Assembly: GCA_016870215.1 (NCBI GenBank)
Contig: VGCD01000019.1
Coordinates: forward strand, 1 to 32,380
Direction of reading: 5' to 3'
DNA length: 32,380 nucleotides
Origin: Actinomycetota bacterium
GTDB lineage: Bacteria > Actinomycetota > Acidimicrobiia > Acidimicrobiales > Ilumatobacteraceae
Numbering within the stretch: position 1 is the stretch's first letter; each line of letters opens with the position of its first letter. The notes under the pieces were generated by a model, which saw nothing but the letters and a program-made list of their open reading frames with translations, had not been told where the DNA came from and searched no databases. The position numbers and the translations under genes are program-made. This document shows positions 9,449-16,234 of the stretch, piece by piece.

Positions 9449-9582
9449 AGGAAATCACTTCCCTGCCAATCGTAATGACATGCGGGTTGCCTGAAGAAAC
9501 CTAATGAGATTCCAATGGCATCGAATTCACGGTGCCCATCCTTGGAAATTCGACTACTCATCTGGTGCTACCGTCCCGTGAC

Positions 9583-10941
9583 ATGAAGACATTCGCCAAA
9601 ATGATGTTGTCGACTCTCACGGCAGGCTCAATGGTCTCGCTCGATGCGTCCTCTGCAAACGCAGCGACACTCACATATCCGGCCCTCAATGCAAGTTTTC
9701 CAAGTTGTACCACAACCGACCAGGAGTTCTGTGTTGAAAGTCTCTCCTTCACCCCCGATGGAGGCACGCCAACTCAAGTGACCGAACCAGCAACCTCATC
9801 ACAATCCGACACCAGCAAACCTTATCTCAATGCGGGTTTCTTTTTCTCTGCTTACACCGGTCCGTCGACGAATGCTGACGGAACAGGGCTTCTGCCAACG
9901 ATGAATGCAAATCTCTTTAACAATTCGGGTTTTCCGCGAAGTGCTGCAATTCGAGATGGTCTCGCAGAGGGAACCTATACCTACCGGCTGCGAACTGGAG
10001 ACTTTGATCCAACGTATGTCGTGATCCAAGGCGACTGGATCAATCACACCGTCGAGAAGGGCGCAGATGGCTACTTCACTCTGGAAGTGACTGCTCGGCC
10101 ACTGACATTTCTGAGTGTCTCGTCGAATATCGGAAAATGCCTTGCGAGCAATTGGAAGACCGACTGTGAGGGCGAAACGGCAACGCGCCGCTGGCTTGGT
10201 GGAGCTTTTGTGATGCACGGAAACGCACAGACACGGGACGTCTCGCGCGGCACTGCCATCTCCACGACGGCCTCCTACATCAGACCTTCAGCTCCTGCAG
10301 CTAACGGACCCGAAGCAAAACAGAGACTCACTGTTGCGGGACCACACTTTGTGCCGGACGGTTTTTTGACAAGCGGAAAAACAGAGAACGGTCGATATCT
10401 CAACCCAGCCGTGTACAAGATGTACCTTCCCTATGCAGCAACTGTTCGCTCTCTCGCTTTGGCAAACATCACTACGACTGAAGACGGAATCAAGAAGTAT
10501 CTCGCTGATCCGAAAAACTCGATTTACAGCGGAACCATCGTGAATGAGGCTGGAATTACTGTAAAGAAAGACCTCACTGTGACGGCTATGGAGAAAGGCG
10601 TGCTCGTCAACTTCAACCTTGACACCTTCTCTGCACCGAATCCGACTCTGTACATGAGCAATCCTGATCGCGTAAGAACCACTGCCACTTCCGGTGCTGC
10701 AATCAGCCCATTGCGTGCTGTGAAGAAAGGGCAGAAGGTAAGTCGCACCACTTTGCTAGGTGCGTCGCCTGGCACCAAGATCGGAACCACTACCTCAAAG
10801 TCGCCGAAAGTGTGTTCCATCGCCGGCTCTACGGTGAGGGCACTGAAGGCTGGAACTTGCAACCTGTCAGTCACGATTTCGACGATGTCTGGCGGCAAGG
10901 CCGTGTTGTCAAAAGTGAACGTGTCCGTCACTGTCAAATAG
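9583..10941 (+). CDS. Secreted protein of unknown function with a C-terminal beta-rich repeat domain
   Basis: The protein is 452 residues from ATG 9583, chosen because a signal peptide begins there (MKTFAKMMLSTLTAG, cleavage likely after ASSANA). The longer frame from 9532 only adds a non-signal leader. The mature part has paired cysteines (FPSCTTTDQEFC; GKCLASNWKTDC) that could form disulphides and no catalytic motif that I recognise. The last 70 residues (KSPKVCSIAGSTVRALKAG, then TCNLSVTISTM) look like the Ig-like or bacterial surface repeats in actinobacterial exoproteins. It is divergent from the papain-like lipoprotein gene, with 134 bases between the starts, so shared regulation is possible. 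The function is unknown. Confidence 0.75.
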   Translation: MKTFAKMMLSTLTAGSMVSLDASSANAATLTYPALNASFPSCTTTDQEFCVESLSFTPDGGTPTQVTEPATSSQSDTSKPYLNAGFFFSAYTGPSTNADGTGLLPTMNANLFNNSGFPRSAAIRDGLAEGTYTYRLRTGDFDPTYVVIQGDWINHTVEKGADGYFTLEVTARPLTFLSVSSNIGKCLASNWKTDCEGETATRRWLGGAFVMHGNAQTRDVSRGTAISTTASYIRPSAPAANGPEAKQRLTVAGPHFVPDGFLTSGKTENGRYLNPAVYKMYLPYAATVRSLALANITTTEDGIKKYLADPKNSIYSGTIVNEAGITVKKDLTVTAMEKGVLVNFNLDTFSAPNPTLYMSNPDRVRTTATSGAAISPLRAVKKGQKVSRTTLLGASPGTKIGTTTSKSPKVCSIAGSTVRALKAGTCNLSVTISTMSGGKAVLSKVNVSVTVK

Positions 10942-11138: not shown

Positions 11139-12272
11139 ATGCCGATGCGCATACGACTCGTTCTGTTGTCCTTACTCGCCCTCTCCGTGGTCGGATGTTC
11201 GTCATCTGACTCAGGTGACAGCACGGAGGCAGGCACAACACCCGAAAATTCAGCAGAGGCGTACTTCGATCGAGGTCCATATCCGGTCGGAATCACCACG
11301 TTGACTCTTGAACGTGGACCAAAAGTTGAAGTGTGGTACCCAGCAGTTGAAGGAACAGTGGGAACAGACACGTACGACGTGCGCGATTACACGCCCGACG
11401 CGATCAAGAAGATTCTCACTGGCGATGTGCCGGCAACTTTTACGATTGATGCAGGTCGTGATGCCGACATTGCTGAAGGGAAACACCCTGTGGTGTTGTT
11501 CAGCCACGGATATTCCGGAATTCGCGTACAGAGCAGCTTCATCACGTCACATCTCGCAAGCTGGGGAATGGTCATCATTTCGCCTGACCACTGGTCACGA
11601 GACCTGAATCATGTGTTCGGCAACAATCCGGTCGGTGACCGCGAGTCCGCAGTTGCTGACCTCTTTGATTCTCTCGATCTTGTTGCAGCAGATTCGCGTT
11701 TTGCCGAATCGGTCGACGTGGAGCGCCTGATTGCCGTCGGACACAGTGCAGGTGGCGGAACAGTGGCACGCGCTGCACGTGACGAACGAATCGATGGCTT
11801 TGTATCAATGGCTTCCGGAGCTCTTGAGTCGAACGACCAACCGACCGCAGAAGAGGCTCCGCAAAAGCCGACGTTCTACATCGCAGGCCGCGCCGATCAG
11901 GTCACGCCTGTGGAGACAGTCACTCGACCTGCCTTCGATGCAGCTGCATCACCATCGCTTCTCTGGGTGATGGACAAGGTCGGCCACAATGGATTCGACG
12001 ATTTCTGCACTTTCGGTAATGGCAAAGGCATCATTGGCGTTGCCGAAGCATCAGGACTCGGAGCGCTGCTGTCCGCACAACCGCAATTCAAGTCCTTGGG
12101 CGAAGACGGCTGCGTAGGAGATGTGGCTCCGAGCACGGTGGCCTTCCCCATCATTCGACACGCAATCACCGCGTGGTCACGACATATTCTCGGACTTGAC
12201 AAGAACGCGGTCGACCTTGGCACGGCTGTTGCGACTAGCTACGCCCTACCGATTGAGATCGTCACTAAGTAG
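11139..12272 (+). CDS. Lipoprotein alpha/beta-hydrolase (PAF-acetylhydrolase / dienelactone-hydrolase-like esterase)
   Basis: The protein is 377 residues and surface-anchored. A lipoprotein signal ends in LSVVGC (C20), followed by a Ser/Asp/Thr-rich spacer. The hydrolase core starts with RGPYPVGITTLTLERG and VEVWYPA, as in platelet-activating-factor acetylhydrolase-type enzymes. SHGYSG marks the oxyanion strand, GHSAGG gives the nucleophile S203, GRADQVTP gives D253 and VGHNGF gives H283, so the triad is complete. It probably cleaves short acyl esters outside the membrane. ATG 11139 is used; ATG 11145 is also possible. It stands alone between tRNA-Cys and a convergent sulfatase-like gene, with 35 bases between stops and no clear terminator. 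Confidence 0.88.
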   Translation: MPMRIRLVLLSLLALSVVGCSSSDSGDSTEAGTTPENSAEAYFDRGPYPVGITTLTLERGPKVEVWYPAVEGTVGTDTYDVRDYTPDAIKKILTGDVPATFTIDAGRDADIAEGKHPVVLFSHGYSGIRVQSSFITSHLASWGMVIISPDHWSRDLNHVFGNNPVGDRESAVADLFDSLDLVAADSRFAESVDVERLIAVGHSAGGGTVARAARDERIDGFVSMASGALESNDQPTAEEAPQKPTFYIAGRADQVTPVETVTRPAFDAAASPSLLWVMDKVGHNGFDDFCTFGNGKGIIGVAEASGLGALLSAQPQFKSLGEDGCVGDVAPSTVAFPIIRHAITAWSRHILGLDKNAVDLGTAVATSYALPIEIVTK

Positions 12273-12307: not shown

Positions 12308-14632
12308 TCACGGTCGACGGGGCGCGGGACCCTTCGTCAGTGTCGGATTTGCAGGATTGCCAACAGCGACAGCCAGTGCAATGGTGTGCGCACCTGGCGT
12401 CATCGATGACTGTGACAGAGTTGTTCGGAAATACAGATTGCTGCCTGCTCGTGCACCGCTCAACTCGCCGATGAATCCAGCAACCTTGCCATCAACGAGG
12501 AACAATCCGACTGCATTCTTCGGCAATGACTTCGCCACGCGAATGCGACCATCAACCTCCATCGGAATCATGGAAAACCGCTTCGAAGGAATGTTCTTGA
12601 AGACAGATTGCTGTGTGGGACTCCACGAAGCGATGTACTGCTCACCCGACGATGGTGTGACCGCCTTGCCCAGAAGCGGCGCATAGGGCGTAACAGCCGC
12701 AATCCCGTCCACTCCAAACGCACTTCCCACCCATTCGTTGTAGAACTTTGCGCGCGCAATCACAGCTTCGGGTCCACTTGTCATCGTTGTCTTGCCTTCA
12801 AGCCAAATCACCTCGCGGGTCGTACGCGGTGGACACTCCGCAGCAAGGTCGACCCCGTCAAAAGACCAACCGGCGTCGATGCCGGTAGCCGCCGCCACAG
12901 TTGGCAAAATGTCAATTCCCATCGCCGGACAATCATCAACTTTTGCGGTGGATTGGTCCGGATACTTGATGAACAACGGCGGGCGATAGATGTCTTCCAC
13001 CGAGCCAAGATTTTTTGGGTTCACCGTCTTGCGCTTCCACTCACCCAACTCGAAGGTCATTCCGTGATCAGATGTCACGATCAACATCGTGCGGTCCCAG
13101 TTCGCAGAGCGCTGCAACTTCGTGACGAGATTGTCGACCAGCGAGTCTGCAGCAGCAGCTTGCAACAAGAACTCCTGATATTCGTCTCGCGCAGTATCGA
13201 GCACGTCACCAGTCTTCTTGTCCGACCCCAGCCACTTGTGTTTACGCAGGTCCGGGGTTAGCTCCCATGGCCTGTGAGGAAGCAACGCATGGACGAAGTG
13301 CAATGTCGCACGCGAAGATTGCGCTGCTCGTTCAGCAACATCAAGAAGCGTCTGTACCTGGGTGACAGGGCCGCCCTCCTGCCAGTCCTTCACGCGCAAT
13401 TTCTTCGCGTCGAGCAACACCTCGGAGTCCTCCTCACCCGAAGTCGACAATGCGCTGCTTCCACTGCTGTCGCTGTCTTCAGTGCCGGCGTTCTCGCTCG
13501 TGCGATCTGAGGCAGAGTCGAGAAGGTCCTCTTCATTGAAGTCACCACCGCCTTGCCCAAAGCCACCCCAGTTCTCGTCGATTGCGGGCAAGCGATCTCG
13601 TAAACCCTTTGGCAGGATTTTGTGACCAAGCACCACGGCAGCGTCCCGAAGGAAGGGAACCATCTGCGGAGTTGCCTTGGCAACTGCGTCAACGACTTCC
13701 GGCGTACTAGTCGTTGTTGTTGCGGGGTTGGCGATGTCTTCGCCGCCAGACACCGACACTGTCTTGCACACTTCCTTCGGACACAACGCTGTCACGACTT
13801 CGTGTGCATCCATGCTGAGATGCCCATTCATGAGTGTGAATAAGTTCTTCGGATGCGACGCAAGCACTGGCGAACCACCTGATTTGGGCTTGAGCCCAGA
13901 CAACATCGCTGGCACGGCATCTGTTGTGGTTTGCGATGTTGCCAACACGTTTCGATACCACGTCGACGTATTGGCGAGCTTTCCGAATCCGGGGAAGCGT
14001 TCGGCATTGACCTTGCCGTTCTCGTCCAACAGTGAAAACAACGGGAACTCGTCAAGTATCAGCCACACGACACTGACATCAGACTTGGCGGTTCCACCCG
14101 TCACGACCGCTTCTCGGTTGGTGTTCTTTAGCTCCACCGCTTCCACCTTGGGTACCCACACCACATCACGTACGGCGAGCGTGAAAAGCACGCACACTGC
14201 AAGCGCCAGAGGTGACATCCACCTCAACCAACCACGCACTTGTGCACGTCGCGCATACAGCAGGGATAGTGCAGCAGCCGCGACACCCGTCACCAGCAAC
14301 GCCACAACCCATGAGCCAAATCCGACATCTCTCAGCAACAGATTGACAAATGCCCAGAACCCCACAAACACGAGCACGCAGTGAACAGATTCTTGCCATG
14401 TTGCTCGAATCGTCGACACCAGAAGTTCAACCGTCCACAAAACGAATGGCGGACCCAACACAACAACCGCCATGAACATGAGCACTCGCGCACCTTGCAT
14501 GTCGGCCGCGGCAAACATGGCCAAGTTGCTGCCGTACAACTGGAGCAACGGCTGAGCTATCGCTGCAGTGAGAATCGTGACATAGACGAATAGGTGCGAG
14601 ACGCTACGTCGAAGAACCGTCCCACGGTCCAT
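12308..14632 (-). CDS. Membrane-anchored sulfatase / alkaline-phosphatase-superfamily enzyme
   Basis: The protein is 774 residues from ATG 14632; a TTG at 14638 would overlap the upstream stop. Five hydrophobic helices fill the first 160 residues. The outer domain starts with VVWLILDEFPLFS (metal-binding D194), has ATSQTTTDAVPAMLSG (Thr nucleophile candidate near 235-237), an Asp/Ser-rich insert, HFVHALLPHRPW, and TSDHGMTFELGEW with the Asp-His metal pair. This is the layout of LTA-synthase-like and phosphoethanolamine-transferase-like enzymes, which move or remove phosphate- or sulphate-linked groups on envelope glycans. The start lies two bases after the methyltransferase stop, so the two are translated together. 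The substrate is unknown, and transferase rather than hydrolase activity is possible. Confidence 0.85.
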   Translation of the reverse strand: MDRGTVLRRSVSHLFVYVTILTAAIAQPLLQLYGSNLAMFAAADMQGARVLMFMAVVVLGPPFVLWTVELLVSTIRATWQESVHCVLVFVGFWAFVNLLLRDVGFGSWVVALLVTGVAAAALSLLYARRAQVRGWLRWMSPLALAVCVLFTLAVRDVVWVPKVEAVELKNTNREAVVTGGTAKSDVSVVWLILDEFPLFSLLDENGKVNAERFPGFGKLANTSTWYRNVLATSQTTTDAVPAMLSGLKPKSGGSPVLASHPKNLFTLMNGHLSMDAHEVVTALCPKEVCKTVSVSGGEDIANPATTTTSTPEVVDAVAKATPQMVPFLRDAAVVLGHKILPKGLRDRLPAIDENWGGFGQGGGDFNEEDLLDSASDRTSENAGTEDSDSSGSSALSTSGEEDSEVLLDAKKLRVKDWQEGGPVTQVQTLLDVAERAAQSSRATLHFVHALLPHRPWELTPDLRKHKWLGSDKKTGDVLDTARDEYQEFLLQAAAADSLVDNLVTKLQRSANWDRTMLIVTSDHGMTFELGEWKRKTVNPKNLGSVEDIYRPPLFIKYPDQSTAKVDDCPAMGIDILPTVAAATGIDAGWSFDGVDLAAECPPRTTREVIWLEGKTTMTSGPEAVIARAKFYNEWVGSAFGVDGIAAVTPYAPLLGKAVTPSSGEQYIASWSPTQQSVFKNIPSKRFSMIPMEVDGRIRVAKSLPKNAVGLFLVDGKVAGFIGELSGARAGSNLYFRTTLSQSSMTPGAHTIALAVAVGNPANPTLTKGPAPRRP

Positions 14633-14634
14633 GG

Positions 14635-16035
14635 TCAACTCTTTCGGGTTGCGTGGAAAATGGTTCGAGTACCACTTGACAGAAGCATCTTCGAACGGAC
14701 ATCGAAACGCTCGCCCAAAAGGCGCTCGAATTCGGCCAAGTTGAAATCTGAGTGGATGCCGTCACGCTTGTTCAGCAAGAGACGTTTCACCATTGGGTCG
14801 TCGGCATGTGGGAACTCGATAACGATCTCTGGGGTGAGATTACGCAACAAGTCGAGCTGAGCCGCCACCGGAATGTTGAAGGTGATGGCAACGTGGTGGA
14901 TGACAGCAAGGAACAACACCACATCTGGCTTGCCGCGGTCGAAGATGCCGGGTCGCTCGATTCCGCGCCAGCCGATTCCCCCACCAGAATCAGACAAGTC
15001 GACGTACAGCGGCAAGATTGACGTGTTCTTCTCATTTCGCAGTGACTGGTACAGACGATCGACTACGAGCGGGTCTGCGTCCATCGCAACAACGTGATCA
15101 GAGTGAGCAGAAGCAATACGGCTGAAGCGTCCGTCGTTGCAACCGATGTCCCACACCTGATGGCGATGGCTGGAGGCAACTGCATCACGTACGAATCGCT
15201 CTTTCTCATCAAGGCTGCTCTCGACATAGTGAGCACGTTCTGAATACTCAGACCATGTCGATTCTTTGTCATGCAGTGAAAGTTCGCCGACTAATTTCTC
15301 GAGTTTGCGCAAAGTCGCATCAAGTACCGCTGCGCTCATGCCCGCCTTCGCGCTTTGCTTTTTCACATCGACCTTGGTGTCTGCGAACTTGTTCTGTGCT
15401 GCTGCGTGCAACACAACGTGAATGAGGCGACCTTTGCGAGGGCGAAGAAGCTTCATGGGAAGCAACTTGCGCATGGTGTCGGGACTGACACCATTCACTG
15501 CACCTCGCATGAACGGCTGGAACTGAACACCGAGGTAGCTCTGCAGCATGAGCGGATACAAGAACATCTCACAGAACTGCTTGTAGCCGTACCAAGGATC
15601 AGTTGCTTTGCGCACTTCGAATGAACCTGCATCAATGAACACCGGCCGCGAACCCACGAATTGCACGTTGTATGGCGTTGCGTCCTTTACGCCCACCCCA
15701 TCTGCAAGCGCAGCACGCGTGAGGCGAAGCTGTGTGAGCGCAGCGTCCTTCAACATGTTGAAGGACCATTCATACGGGTAAGAAACAAACGGAAGCCGCG
15801 GATGACGCATTGCCGCAACCCATTCACTGTCGAGACCGACACTCGCCGAATCAACGAACTCAGACGCAATCAACTCGCCAGAGGCGAGGGCATCACTGAT
15901 GAACTTCTTTGACCACACCGCGTCGATATCCGACTTGCCCATTGCTGAGAAGCCGCGAATGACATCATCACCGGTGACGAATACCCGACTCAATGGGTCG
16001 CGAAACGACCCTTTATCGGCCGCGAGGTTCGACAT
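14635..16035 (-). CDS. Fusion of kinase-like N-terminal domain and class I SAM methyltransferase
   Basis: The protein is 466 residues from ATG 16035; the longer frame upstream only overlaps the small gene before it. The first half has YPYEWSFNMLKDAALTQL, then DATPYNVQF (118-126) and PVFIDAGSFE (131-140), which recall the catalytic loop and metal-binding Asp of small-molecule kinases. The second half is a Rossmann methyltransferase: VWDIGCNDGRFS (294-305) binds SAM, AMDADPLVV is the ribose-contact acidic loop, and LFLAVIHHV follows. The N-half assignment is a motif reading, not proof of kinase activity. It begins four bases after the mini-membrane gene and ends against the sulfatase-like gene, forming a tight three-gene operon. 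It probably modifies a lipid-linked or glycan intermediate at the membrane. Confidence 0.8.
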   Translation of the reverse strand: MSNLAADKGSFRDPLSRVFVTGDDVIRGFSAMGKSDIDAVWSKKFISDALASGELIASEFVDSASVGLDSEWVAAMRHPRLPFVSYPYEWSFNMLKDAALTQLRLTRAALADGVGVKDATPYNVQFVGSRPVFIDAGSFEVRKATDPWYGYKQFCEMFLYPLMLQSYLGVQFQPFMRGAVNGVSPDTMRKLLPMKLLRPRKGRLIHVVLHAAAQNKFADTKVDVKKQSAKAGMSAAVLDATLRKLEKLVGELSLHDKESTWSEYSERAHYVESSLDEKERFVRDAVASSHRHQVWDIGCNDGRFSRIASAHSDHVVAMDADPLVVDRLYQSLRNEKNTSILPLYVDLSDSGGGIGWRGIERPGIFDRGKPDVVLFLAVIHHVAITFNIPVAAQLDLLRNLTPEIVIEFPHADDPMVKRLLLNKRDGIHSDFNLAEFERLLGERFDVRSKMLLSSGTRTIFHATRKS

Positions 16036-16039
16036 TGAG

Positions 16040-16234
16040 TCAGTCGTGTGACGAGGAGTCGCCGTCAGATGATTCACCGGCGTCTGGCTCTTGACCACCC
16101 TTGCCAGTGAACTTCGACTTGAAGCGCTGCAGACCCATCTTGGCGGCAACACCGATTCCGGCAACGCCGCCGGCGATGGCGGTAACGATCATGCTGCCGG
16201 TACCGGCATCGAGGTAAGAGAACATGCTGGTCAC
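16040..16234 (-). CDS. YLDxGTGS mini-membrane protein
   Basis: This 64-residue protein starts at GTG 16234, with GGAG four bases upstream; ATG 16225 would give the shorter MFSYLDAGTGS start seen in relatives. YLDAGTGSM matches the YLDPGTGS N-terminus that I recall for small single-helix proteins beside sulfatase-like and methyltransferase genes; here Pro is Ala. One hydrophobic helix (about 15-33, rich in Gly/Ala) is followed by a basic patch (LQRFKSKFTGK) and an acidic Ser/Asp tail. It is first in the operon with the kinase/methyltransferase fusion and the membrane sulfatase. The likely role is a membrane scaffold or chaperone for those enzymes (inference). The function is undescribed as far as I know. 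Confidence 0.75.
   Translation of the reverse strand: MTSMFSYLDAGTGSMIVTAIAGGVAGIGVAAKMGLQRFKSKFTGKGGQEPDAGESSDGDSSSHD

What the first reader, a model, noticed from the sequence alone, without database searches (positions are those of the whole stretch)
12308..16234. Three-gene cassette: YLDxGTGS mini-membrane protein, kinase-like/methyltransferase fusion, membrane sulfatase-like enzyme
The three genes are packed with gaps of four and two bases and share one strand. The first encodes a 64-residue single-helix protein with YLDAGTGS, a motif I recall from other bacteria as YLDPGTGS beside sulfatase-like and methyltransferase genes. The second fuses a kinase-catalytic-loop-like half (DATPYNVQF, FIDAGSFE) to a SAM methyltransferase. 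The third is a five-helix alkaline-phosphatase-fold enzyme facing outward. Phosphorylation and methylation inside followed by transfer or trimming outside is a coherent envelope-modification route (inference). I know of no described system with these parts.
Basis: partly seen in the sequence, partly recalled or inferred. Interest (0 to 1): 0.75.

Follow-up and report, generated by a model that had tools for sequence, protein, structure and literature searches.

The report
Tyrosine microprotein with kinase-methyltransferase and transferase
A three-gene unit found in several bacterial phyla, including the nodulation operon of a plant symbiont, pairs two likely surface-modifying enzymes with a tiny membrane protein, little noticed so far, that is nearly always present where they occur.

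Summary
The cassette is real and the coordinates are right. Gene 2 is a full-length homologue of Sinorhizobium NoeA (33% identity over 98%). That kinase-methyltransferase family, its conserved neighbours and the NoeA-NoeB pair are in print (PMC9758233), so 'no described system' is wrong for two parts. Gene 3 is a phosphatase-fold membrane enzyme with a threonine nucleophile, not a formylglycine sulfatase. Gene 1 I did not find described: a microprotein with an invariant outer Tyr (107 of 107 readable loci), directly upstream of noeA in 108 of 112 loci (71 of 74 dereplicated). In 813 genomes, all 41 with a strong microprotein hit have NoeA. Of 46 genomes with a strong NoeA hit, 41 have it, 3 have a diverged form and 2 are contig-edge cases; one further, diverged NoeA relative (G035) lacks it. 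Six of seven copies unlinked from noeA adjoin a phosphatase-fold gene. It lies, as 'hypothetical protein', inside nodL-noeA-noeB. Best reading: an envelope phosphate-modification module coupled across the membrane by the microprotein; the chemistry is inferred. The kinase fold was not confirmed here: structure prediction was off and profile tests were not significant.

The parts
16040..16234 (-). Microprotein (64 aa from GTG, 61 aa from ATG at 16225): short outer N-terminus with YLDAGTGS, one glycine-rich membrane helix, basic inner tail (topology inferred)
   Evidence: family profile hit 1.4e-15 at this place; no convincing Pfam or NCBIfam family
14635..16035 (-). NoeA-family kinase-like/methyltransferase fusion, 466 aa; R27, D118, N123, D135 kinase-core positions; SAM domain about residues 290-390
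12308..14632 (-). NoeB-like alkaline-phosphatase-fold membrane enzyme, 774 aa; D194, T236 (nucleophile), H448, H453, D522, H523 invariant in 45 aligned partners; about five N-terminal membrane segments

Best explanation
A three-part cell-envelope modification module. Inside, the NoeA-like enzyme phosphorylates a membrane-associated glycan or lipid acceptor and methylates it or its new phosphate (WbdD-like chemistry; inferred). Outside, the phosphatase-fold enzyme uses Thr236 to transfer or remove a phosphate-linked group on the same surface product (active site shown by conservation, reaction inferred). The microprotein crosses the membrane once, motif outside and basic tail inside. It acts as the obligatory linking subunit between, or docking site for, the two enzymes (co-occurrence and topology supported by sequence; physical contact inferred).
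For: Microprotein gene directly upstream of noeA in 108 of 112 loci (71 of 74 dereplicated) across several phyla, including S. meliloti pSymA. Of the other four, two genomes carry it elsewhere (L007's genome G218; L048's genome G314), one locus has it antiparallel downstream (L044) and one has no upstream sequence (L037). All 18 genomes of named NoeA loci searched have it (20 asked, 2 not held). In 296 Actinomycetota, 299 genomes of the phylum of G313 (Nitratireductor) and 218 of the phylum of G308 (Ignavibacteria), strong NoeA hits are in 33, 7 and 6 genomes and strong mini hits in 31, 6 and 4, all within the NoeA sets. Three NoeA genomes missed by the profile have diverged minis seen by eye (YVDPG, YNDPG, YTDPG). 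Two are contig-edge cases, one of which shows the tail of the mini (L027). Six minis unlinked from noeA (five genomes, four lineages) lie directly beside a phosphatase-fold gene; in three genomes the order is mini, phosphatase-fold gene, noeA (L303-L305). Kinase-core residues invariant; the methyltransferase half best matches WbdD in the PDB, E 0.0011. Thr nucleophile in 45 of 45. Topology: 31 of 100 minis flagged with a hydrophobic segment before the Tyr, -1 residue Ala in 77 of 100; net charge higher on the inner side in 99 of 100. One mini plus phosphatase-fold pair directly follows PEP mutase-cytidylyltransferase, a TPP enzyme, an iron alcohol dehydrogenase and a CDP-glycerol glycerophosphotransferase-like gene (L147), a phosphonate surface-polymer context.
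Against: No structure or complex could be predicted. The kinase half is not confirmed by any profile here. 110 neighbour proteins of 46 named loci fall in 96 Pfam families, none in more than 3, so genome context does not name a substrate. In 13 of 92 loci with at least 1 kb on both sides no phosphatase-fold gene is near, so that enzyme may be optional or encoded elsewhere. G035 has a diverged NoeA relative (profile E 2.3e-45) with no mini within 6 kb nor in its genome. G314's unlinked mini is beside neither enzyme in the 6 kb read. The mini profile was trained partly on the Actinomycetota genomes in which it was then counted, the three phylum samples are centred on NoeA carriers, and the genome search scores only the best candidates of a first look, so absences are not absolute.
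Confidence: 0.5

Rival explanations
1. The microprotein is a covalent shuttle, as DltX is for D-alanine: its invariant outer tyrosine accepts a phosphate-linked or methylphosphate-type group and hands it to the threonine of the phosphatase-fold enzyme, which transfers it to an envelope polymer.
For: Tyr in 107 of 107 readable loci found by a profile built without the motif columns, Asp in 105 of 107, and both kept in the three most diverged minis. Mini genes adjoin the phosphatase-fold gene when unlinked from noeA. [quoted passage not shown]
Against: No membrane channel protein like DltB is among the three parts, so how a group made by cytoplasmic NoeA would reach an outer Tyr is unexplained. 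The motif is not DltX's FxYxxF and lies at the N-terminus. The training rows of the profile had been picked with a Tyr-containing pattern.
Confidence: 0.15
2. The module modifies a secreted small signal molecule, as is proposed for NoeA/NoeB and Nod factors.
For: Homology to NoeA and to the nodL-noeA-noeB operon; host-range role of noeA/noeB as cited in PMC9758233, PMC9048898, PMC10945364 and PMC4053727 (passages).
Against: The genes examined beside the window cassette are not nodulation genes, and no neighbour family recurs across 46 named loci. Most carriers found here are Actinomycetota; a Nod-factor-specific role would be a late special use.
Confidence: 0.15
3. The microprotein is itself the product: a small secreted or membrane peptide that NoeA modifies before export and the outer enzyme trims.
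For: It is conserved, short, usually encoded first, and in about 30 of 100 loci preceded by a signal-peptide-like segment ending at the motif.
Against: The membrane helix and basic inner tail are conserved too, which a released peptide would not need; copies beside the phosphatase-fold gene away from noeA fit a partner better than a NoeA substrate.
Confidence: 0.1
4. The N-half is not an active kinase (pseudokinase or other fold) and the enzyme is only a methyltransferase.
For: No profile test here reaches significance; an Arg stands where PKA has Lys72 (PMC9758233).
Against: D118, N123 and D135 keep a D-x4-N-x11-D spacing and are invariant in 36 of 36; the published model of the family shows a kinase fold.
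Confidence: 0.15

Closest known systems
NoeA and NoeB of Sinorhizobium meliloti, nodL-noeA-noeB operon (Ardourel et al. 1995, seen only as cited)
   Same: Full-length homologous kinase-like/methyltransferase; phosphatase-fold neighbour directly downstream; the microprotein lies between nodL and noeA
   Different: No nodulation genes beside the window cassette; NoeB is 553 aa against 774; the microprotein is annotated there only as 'hypothetical protein'
Lani_1194/Lani_1195 kinase family of Legionella and 1201 further species (PMC9758233)
   Same: Same kinase-methyltransferase architecture; the paper calls NoeA a homologue of Lani_1194 and NoeB of Lani_1195, and reports conserved neighbours, most often on one strand
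   Different: The passages and section read never say what neighbour Lani_1193 (65% of 816 neighbourhoods) is, so whether it equals the microprotein is open; no motif, topology or obligate co-occurrence is described there
WbdD of E. coli O9a
   Same: Kinase and methyltransferase in one protein that phosphorylates a glycan end and methylates the phosphate (abstract); its methyltransferase is the best PDB profile hit (E 0.0011)
   Different: Domain order reversed (methyltransferase first in WbdD); no microprotein is mentioned in the abstract
Threonine-type phosphatase-fold envelope transferases (LtaS, LtaP, EptA and kin; nucleophile type recalled)
   Same: Lipoteichoic acid primase is the best PDB match of gene 3 (E 2e-5); several N-terminal membrane segments, Thr nucleophile and metal-ligand residues conserved
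   Different: Sequence similarity weak (S. meliloti NoeB itself finds no such entry); tied to a microprotein and a kinase-methyltransferase
DltX of the teichoic-acid D-alanylation system
   Same: Membrane microprotein with one invariant Tyr in a short extracytoplasmic motif, working with an outer transferase (PMC12148441, passages)
   Different: Motif N-terminal and of other sequence; partners are of other families; shuttle role untested

Membership tests
NoeA kinase-methyltransferase family | Full-length sequence homology to NoeA | tested here: met
   About 33% identity over 98% of the query to Sinorhizobium NoeA; 47% mean column identity in 36 aligned relatives
NoeA kinase-methyltransferase family | Conserved Arg, Asp, Asn, Asp of an atypical kinase active site | tested here: met
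   R27, D118, N123, D135 invariant
NoeA kinase-methyltransferase family | Kinase fold of the N-half | tested here: inconclusive
   No PDB profile match; best hhalign to protein kinases covers the catalytic loop but E 0.12 against 0.21 for a control family, and a C-half comparison scored 0.016 by noise; structure prediction off
NoeA kinase-methyltransferase family | Class I SAM methyltransferase C-half | tested here: met
   Methyltransf_12 E 1.1e-4, below its curated cut-off; 25 of 36 relatives match Methyltransf_23 at E up to 1; WbdD profile hit
WbdD-type O-antigen terminator | Methyltransferase followed by kinase in that order | tested here: not met
   Kinase-like part is N-terminal, methyltransferase C-terminal
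Type I formylglycine sulfatase | Cys/Ser-x-Pro-x-Arg modification site as nucleophile (recalled) | tested here: not met
   Thr236 at the nucleophile place, Thr in 45 of 45
Threonine-type phosphatase-fold envelope phosphotransferase | Thr nucleophile, metal-ligand Asp/His set, N-terminal membrane domain | tested here: met
   D194, T236, H453, D522, H523 invariant; five hydrophobic segments
Threonine-type phosphatase-fold envelope phosphotransferase | Phosphotransferase activity | not testable with these tools
   needs biochemistry
DltX-type acyl-shuttle microprotein | Single membrane helix with an invariant extracytoplasmic Tyr | tested here: met
   Tyr 107 of 107; charge bias and signal-peptide-like segments place the motif outside by inference
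DltX-type acyl-shuttle microprotein | C-terminal FxYxxF motif beside an MBOAT and an SGNH protein | tested here: not met
   Motif is N-terminal Y-L-D-x-G-T/S-G-S; partners are NoeA- and phosphatase-fold proteins

The most novel reading that the evidence does not exclude
A new kind of trans-membrane group-transfer system: a DltX-like microprotein whose invariant outer tyrosine carries a phosphate-type group between a cytoplasmic kinase-methyltransferase and an outer threonine-type phosphatase-fold transferase. It would be spread over several phyla and would be the overlooked fourth gene of the nodL-noeA-noeB host-range operon.
Probability: 0.13. Interest if true: 0.9.

Novelty: new variant of a known kind. 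Interest (0 to 1): 0.6.

Why it matters
NoeA and NoeB have been host-range genes since 1995 (as cited), and the papers read here name no demonstrated reaction for them; a large kinase-methyltransferase family shares that gap. The sequences show a third, nearly invariable component with one invariant tyrosine, which gives a concrete, small target: delete it or mutate one residue in a laboratory Sinorhizobium and ask whether noeA/noeB function fails. If it does, the operon has a missing part and the wider family gets a testable mechanism.

Tried and rejected
No fold searches were made.

Kinase test by profile: the N-half compared with aminoglycoside-phosphotransferase-like, protein-kinase, glycosyltransferase-2 (control) and phosphatase-fold (control) alignments gave E 0.61, 0.12, 0.21 and 0.43; the C-half against the first gave 0.016, which shows the noise. 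The PDB profile search of the N-half gave one unrelated entry at E 1.8.

Genome context as a guide to substrate: 110 neighbour proteins, no recurring family. Genes were called by length alone, so shadow frames may be among them; phosphatase-fold genes had been taken out beforehand.

Wide horizontal transfer: a quick tree of 81 NoeA proteins keeps Actinomycetota on one side of a branch (support 86) and needs 10 label changes for 8 phyla (least possible 7), with Acidobacteriota and Planctomycetota somewhat scattered (3 changes each for 4 rows), so I do not claim rampant transfer.

'Sulfatase' was rejected for the third gene on its nucleophile. Pfam Vp25_capsid and beta-lactamase or sorting-signal NCBIfam matches of the mini are taken as weak chance hits.

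Rows dropped: the mini profile A3 used 36 of 43 dereplicated cores (left out: L012, L050, L058, L060, L077, L086, L100). The neighbour tally used 110 of 115 selected of 263 pooled. The partner active-site count used 45 proteins, window included, that were complete and directly downstream; many are from Micromonospora. In the co-occurrence counts, NoeA hits in G006, G035 and G732 and weak mini hits in G012, G080, G091, G206, G271, G275 and G538 were not counted as present. G035 proved on a closer look to be a diverged NoeA relative without a mini.
Full report
What is there. The three minus-strand genes are at 16040-16234, 14635-16035 and 12308-14632, with gaps of 4 and 2 bases. The genes examined beside them are an alpha/beta hydrolase, a protein without a Pfam match, a Cys/Met PLP enzyme, a DUF1295 protein and an acyltransferase. 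None is a nodulation gene or an evident glycan gene, so the cassette seems to stand alone. The window lies in a 2.0-Mb draft genome with one NoeA and one microprotein found. NoeA is in 25 of 32 genomes of the genus and in none of the 9 other sampled genomes of the family.

Gene 2. tblastn against plasmids found 65 records, 57 of them Sinorhizobium, at about 33% identity over 98% of the query for NoeA. In 36 aligned relatives R27, D118, N123 and D135 are invariant. The family was described in 2022 as Lani_1194, a predicted kinase-methyltransferase, homologous to NoeA, with conserved neighbours Lani_1193 (65%) and Lani_1195 (38% of 816 neighbourhoods); Lani_1195 and NoeB are given a phosphatase fold (PMC9758233, section 8 read in full; other passages). 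My own kinase tests were inconclusive. The methyltransferase half best matches WbdD among solved structures (E 0.0011). WbdD phosphorylates a glycan end and methylates the phosphate (abstract).

Gene 3. PF00884 at 59.7 bits; best PDB sequence match lipoteichoic acid primase, E 2e-5; S. meliloti NoeB itself finds no phosphatase-fold entry at E up to 1 but matches PF00884 at 40.9 bits. In 45 partners, window included and many from Micromonospora, D194, T236, H448, H453, D522 and H523 are invariant. The nucleophile is threonine, so this is not a formylglycine sulfatase; that threonine marks the phospho-transferase branch is recalled knowledge. A phosphatase-fold gene adjoins noeA in 77 of 92 loci with at least 1 kb on both sides (61 directly downstream on the same strand), is further off in 2 and not found in 13. 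Over all 112 loci, some cut short, 90 have a hit.

Gene 1. No Pfam or NCBIfam family matches it convincingly, and no paper in the held library contains the letters YLDPGTGS or YLDPG. Searches with noeA/noeB and with kinase-methyltransferase plus sulfatase plus small membrane protein did not bring up a description in what I saw (listings). This is a limited library, and Lani_1193 of the 2022 paper may be this protein; the text read does not say. A profile places the microprotein on the same strand, ending within 500 bases upstream of noeA, in 108 of 112 loci, 71 of 74 after dereplication. Three pairs of the 112 are one locus fetched twice. A profile built from the helix and tail alone finds 108 loci and shows Tyr in 107 of 107 readable motifs and Asp in 105 of 107 (its training rows had been chosen with a Tyr-containing pattern). 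The four other loci: L044 has it downstream, antiparallel; L037 has no upstream sequence; L007 and L048 have none adjacent, but their genomes G218 and G314 carry it elsewhere. The set includes the S. meliloti pSymA operon; in three annotated rhizobial records the gene between nodL and noeA is called 'hypothetical protein'.

Co-occurrence. Over 296 Actinomycetota genomes NoeA has strong hits in 33 and the microprotein strong hits (E 5.9e-6 or better) in 31, all among the 33; the two others, G147 and G183, are cut at contig edges, and G147's locus L027 still shows the mini's tail. Of two weaker NoeA hits, G006 covers the methyltransferase part only; G035 is a diverged full relative (profile E 2.3e-45) with no mini within 6 kb or in its genome, the one case against strict co-occurrence. 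Over 299 genomes of the phylum of G313: NoeA 7, microprotein 6 of these; the seventh, G450, has a diverged YVDPG form. Over 218 genomes of the phylum of G308: NoeA 6 strong and 1 weak partial, microprotein 4 of the 6; the other two, G701 and G824, have diverged forms seen by eye. In total no strong microprotein hit lies outside the 46 NoeA genomes among 813. Weak hits (E 4e-4 to 9e-3) in seven other genomes are mostly partial or lie in long frames and were not counted. Limits: each sample is centred on a NoeA carrier, the mini profile was trained partly on minis of the Actinomycetota sample, and only the best candidates of a first look are scored.

Two-way tie. Six microprotein genes in five genomes (four lineages; G013 and G028 share a genus) are unlinked from noeA. 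Each lies directly beside a phosphatase-fold gene, while noeA lies elsewhere in the same genome. A seventh, in G314, is beside neither in the 6 kb read. In three further genomes the order is mini, phosphatase-fold gene, noeA. So the small protein belongs with both enzymes. In G177 one such pair follows PEP mutase fused to a cytidylyltransferase, a TPP enzyme, an iron alcohol dehydrogenase and a CDP-glycerol glycerophosphotransferase-like gene, which points to phosphate or phosphonate groups on a surface polymer.

Topology. A hydrophobic segment before the Tyr is flagged in 31 of 100 loci (one or two doubtful) and the preceding residue is Ala in 77 of 100; net charge is higher on the far side of the helix in 99 of 100. 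The motif therefore most likely faces outward and the basic tail inward (inference by the positive-inside rule).

How it may work. Shown: conservation, gene order, co-occurrence, intact active sites. Inferred: NoeA adds phosphate and methyl to a membrane-bound glycan or lipid inside; the outer enzyme transfers or removes a phosphate-linked group; the microprotein couples them. An invariant outer Tyr in a microprotein recalls DltX, which carries D-alanine on such a Tyr (PMC12148441, passages). I rate a true shuttle at about 0.13-0.15, because no channel protein is present and the motif differs. Another small membrane protein, MspA, is reported to interact with LtaS and limit its processing (PMC11323550, abstract and outline), so a plain regulatory role is also reasonable.

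Verdict. The kinase-methyltransferase plus phosphatase-fold pair is known; I saw no demonstrated reaction for it. The small third part and its near-strict tie to both enzymes is what I add. A tree of 81 NoeA proteins follows phyla well enough that I do not claim frequent transfer.

Noticed in passing
window 11139-12272 +: Secreted, lipoprotein-like alpha/beta hydrolase related to PET/BHET hydrolases (PF12740 38 bits; NF051441 41 bits, far below its cut-off).
   Followed up: no
window 9532-10941 +: 469-aa protein with a possible signal segment and no Pfam or NCBIfam match.
   Followed up: no
L147 8523-15041 (genome G177): Phosphonate-type gene set (PEP mutase with cytidylyltransferase, TPP enzyme, Fe-ADH, CDP-glycerol glycerophosphotransferase-like) directly before a microprotein and phosphatase-fold pair.
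   Followed up: partly
L034 and L042, downstream of noeA: Two phosphatase-fold genes in tandem after noeA in close relatives; the window has one.
   Followed up: no
L044 9390-9596 -: The microprotein gene lies antiparallel downstream of noeA, with a phosphatase-fold gene upstream: the same parts in another arrangement.
   Followed up: no
L272 8037-10139 (genome G312): A second microprotein directly before a second NoeA-like frame, about 16 kb from the first, with no phosphatase-fold hit in the 19 kb read.
   Followed up: no
L302 2370-3986 - (genome G035): A diverged NoeA relative without a microprotein, beside a frame that by eye resembles a nucleotide-sugar dehydratase (not searched further).
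   Followed up: partly
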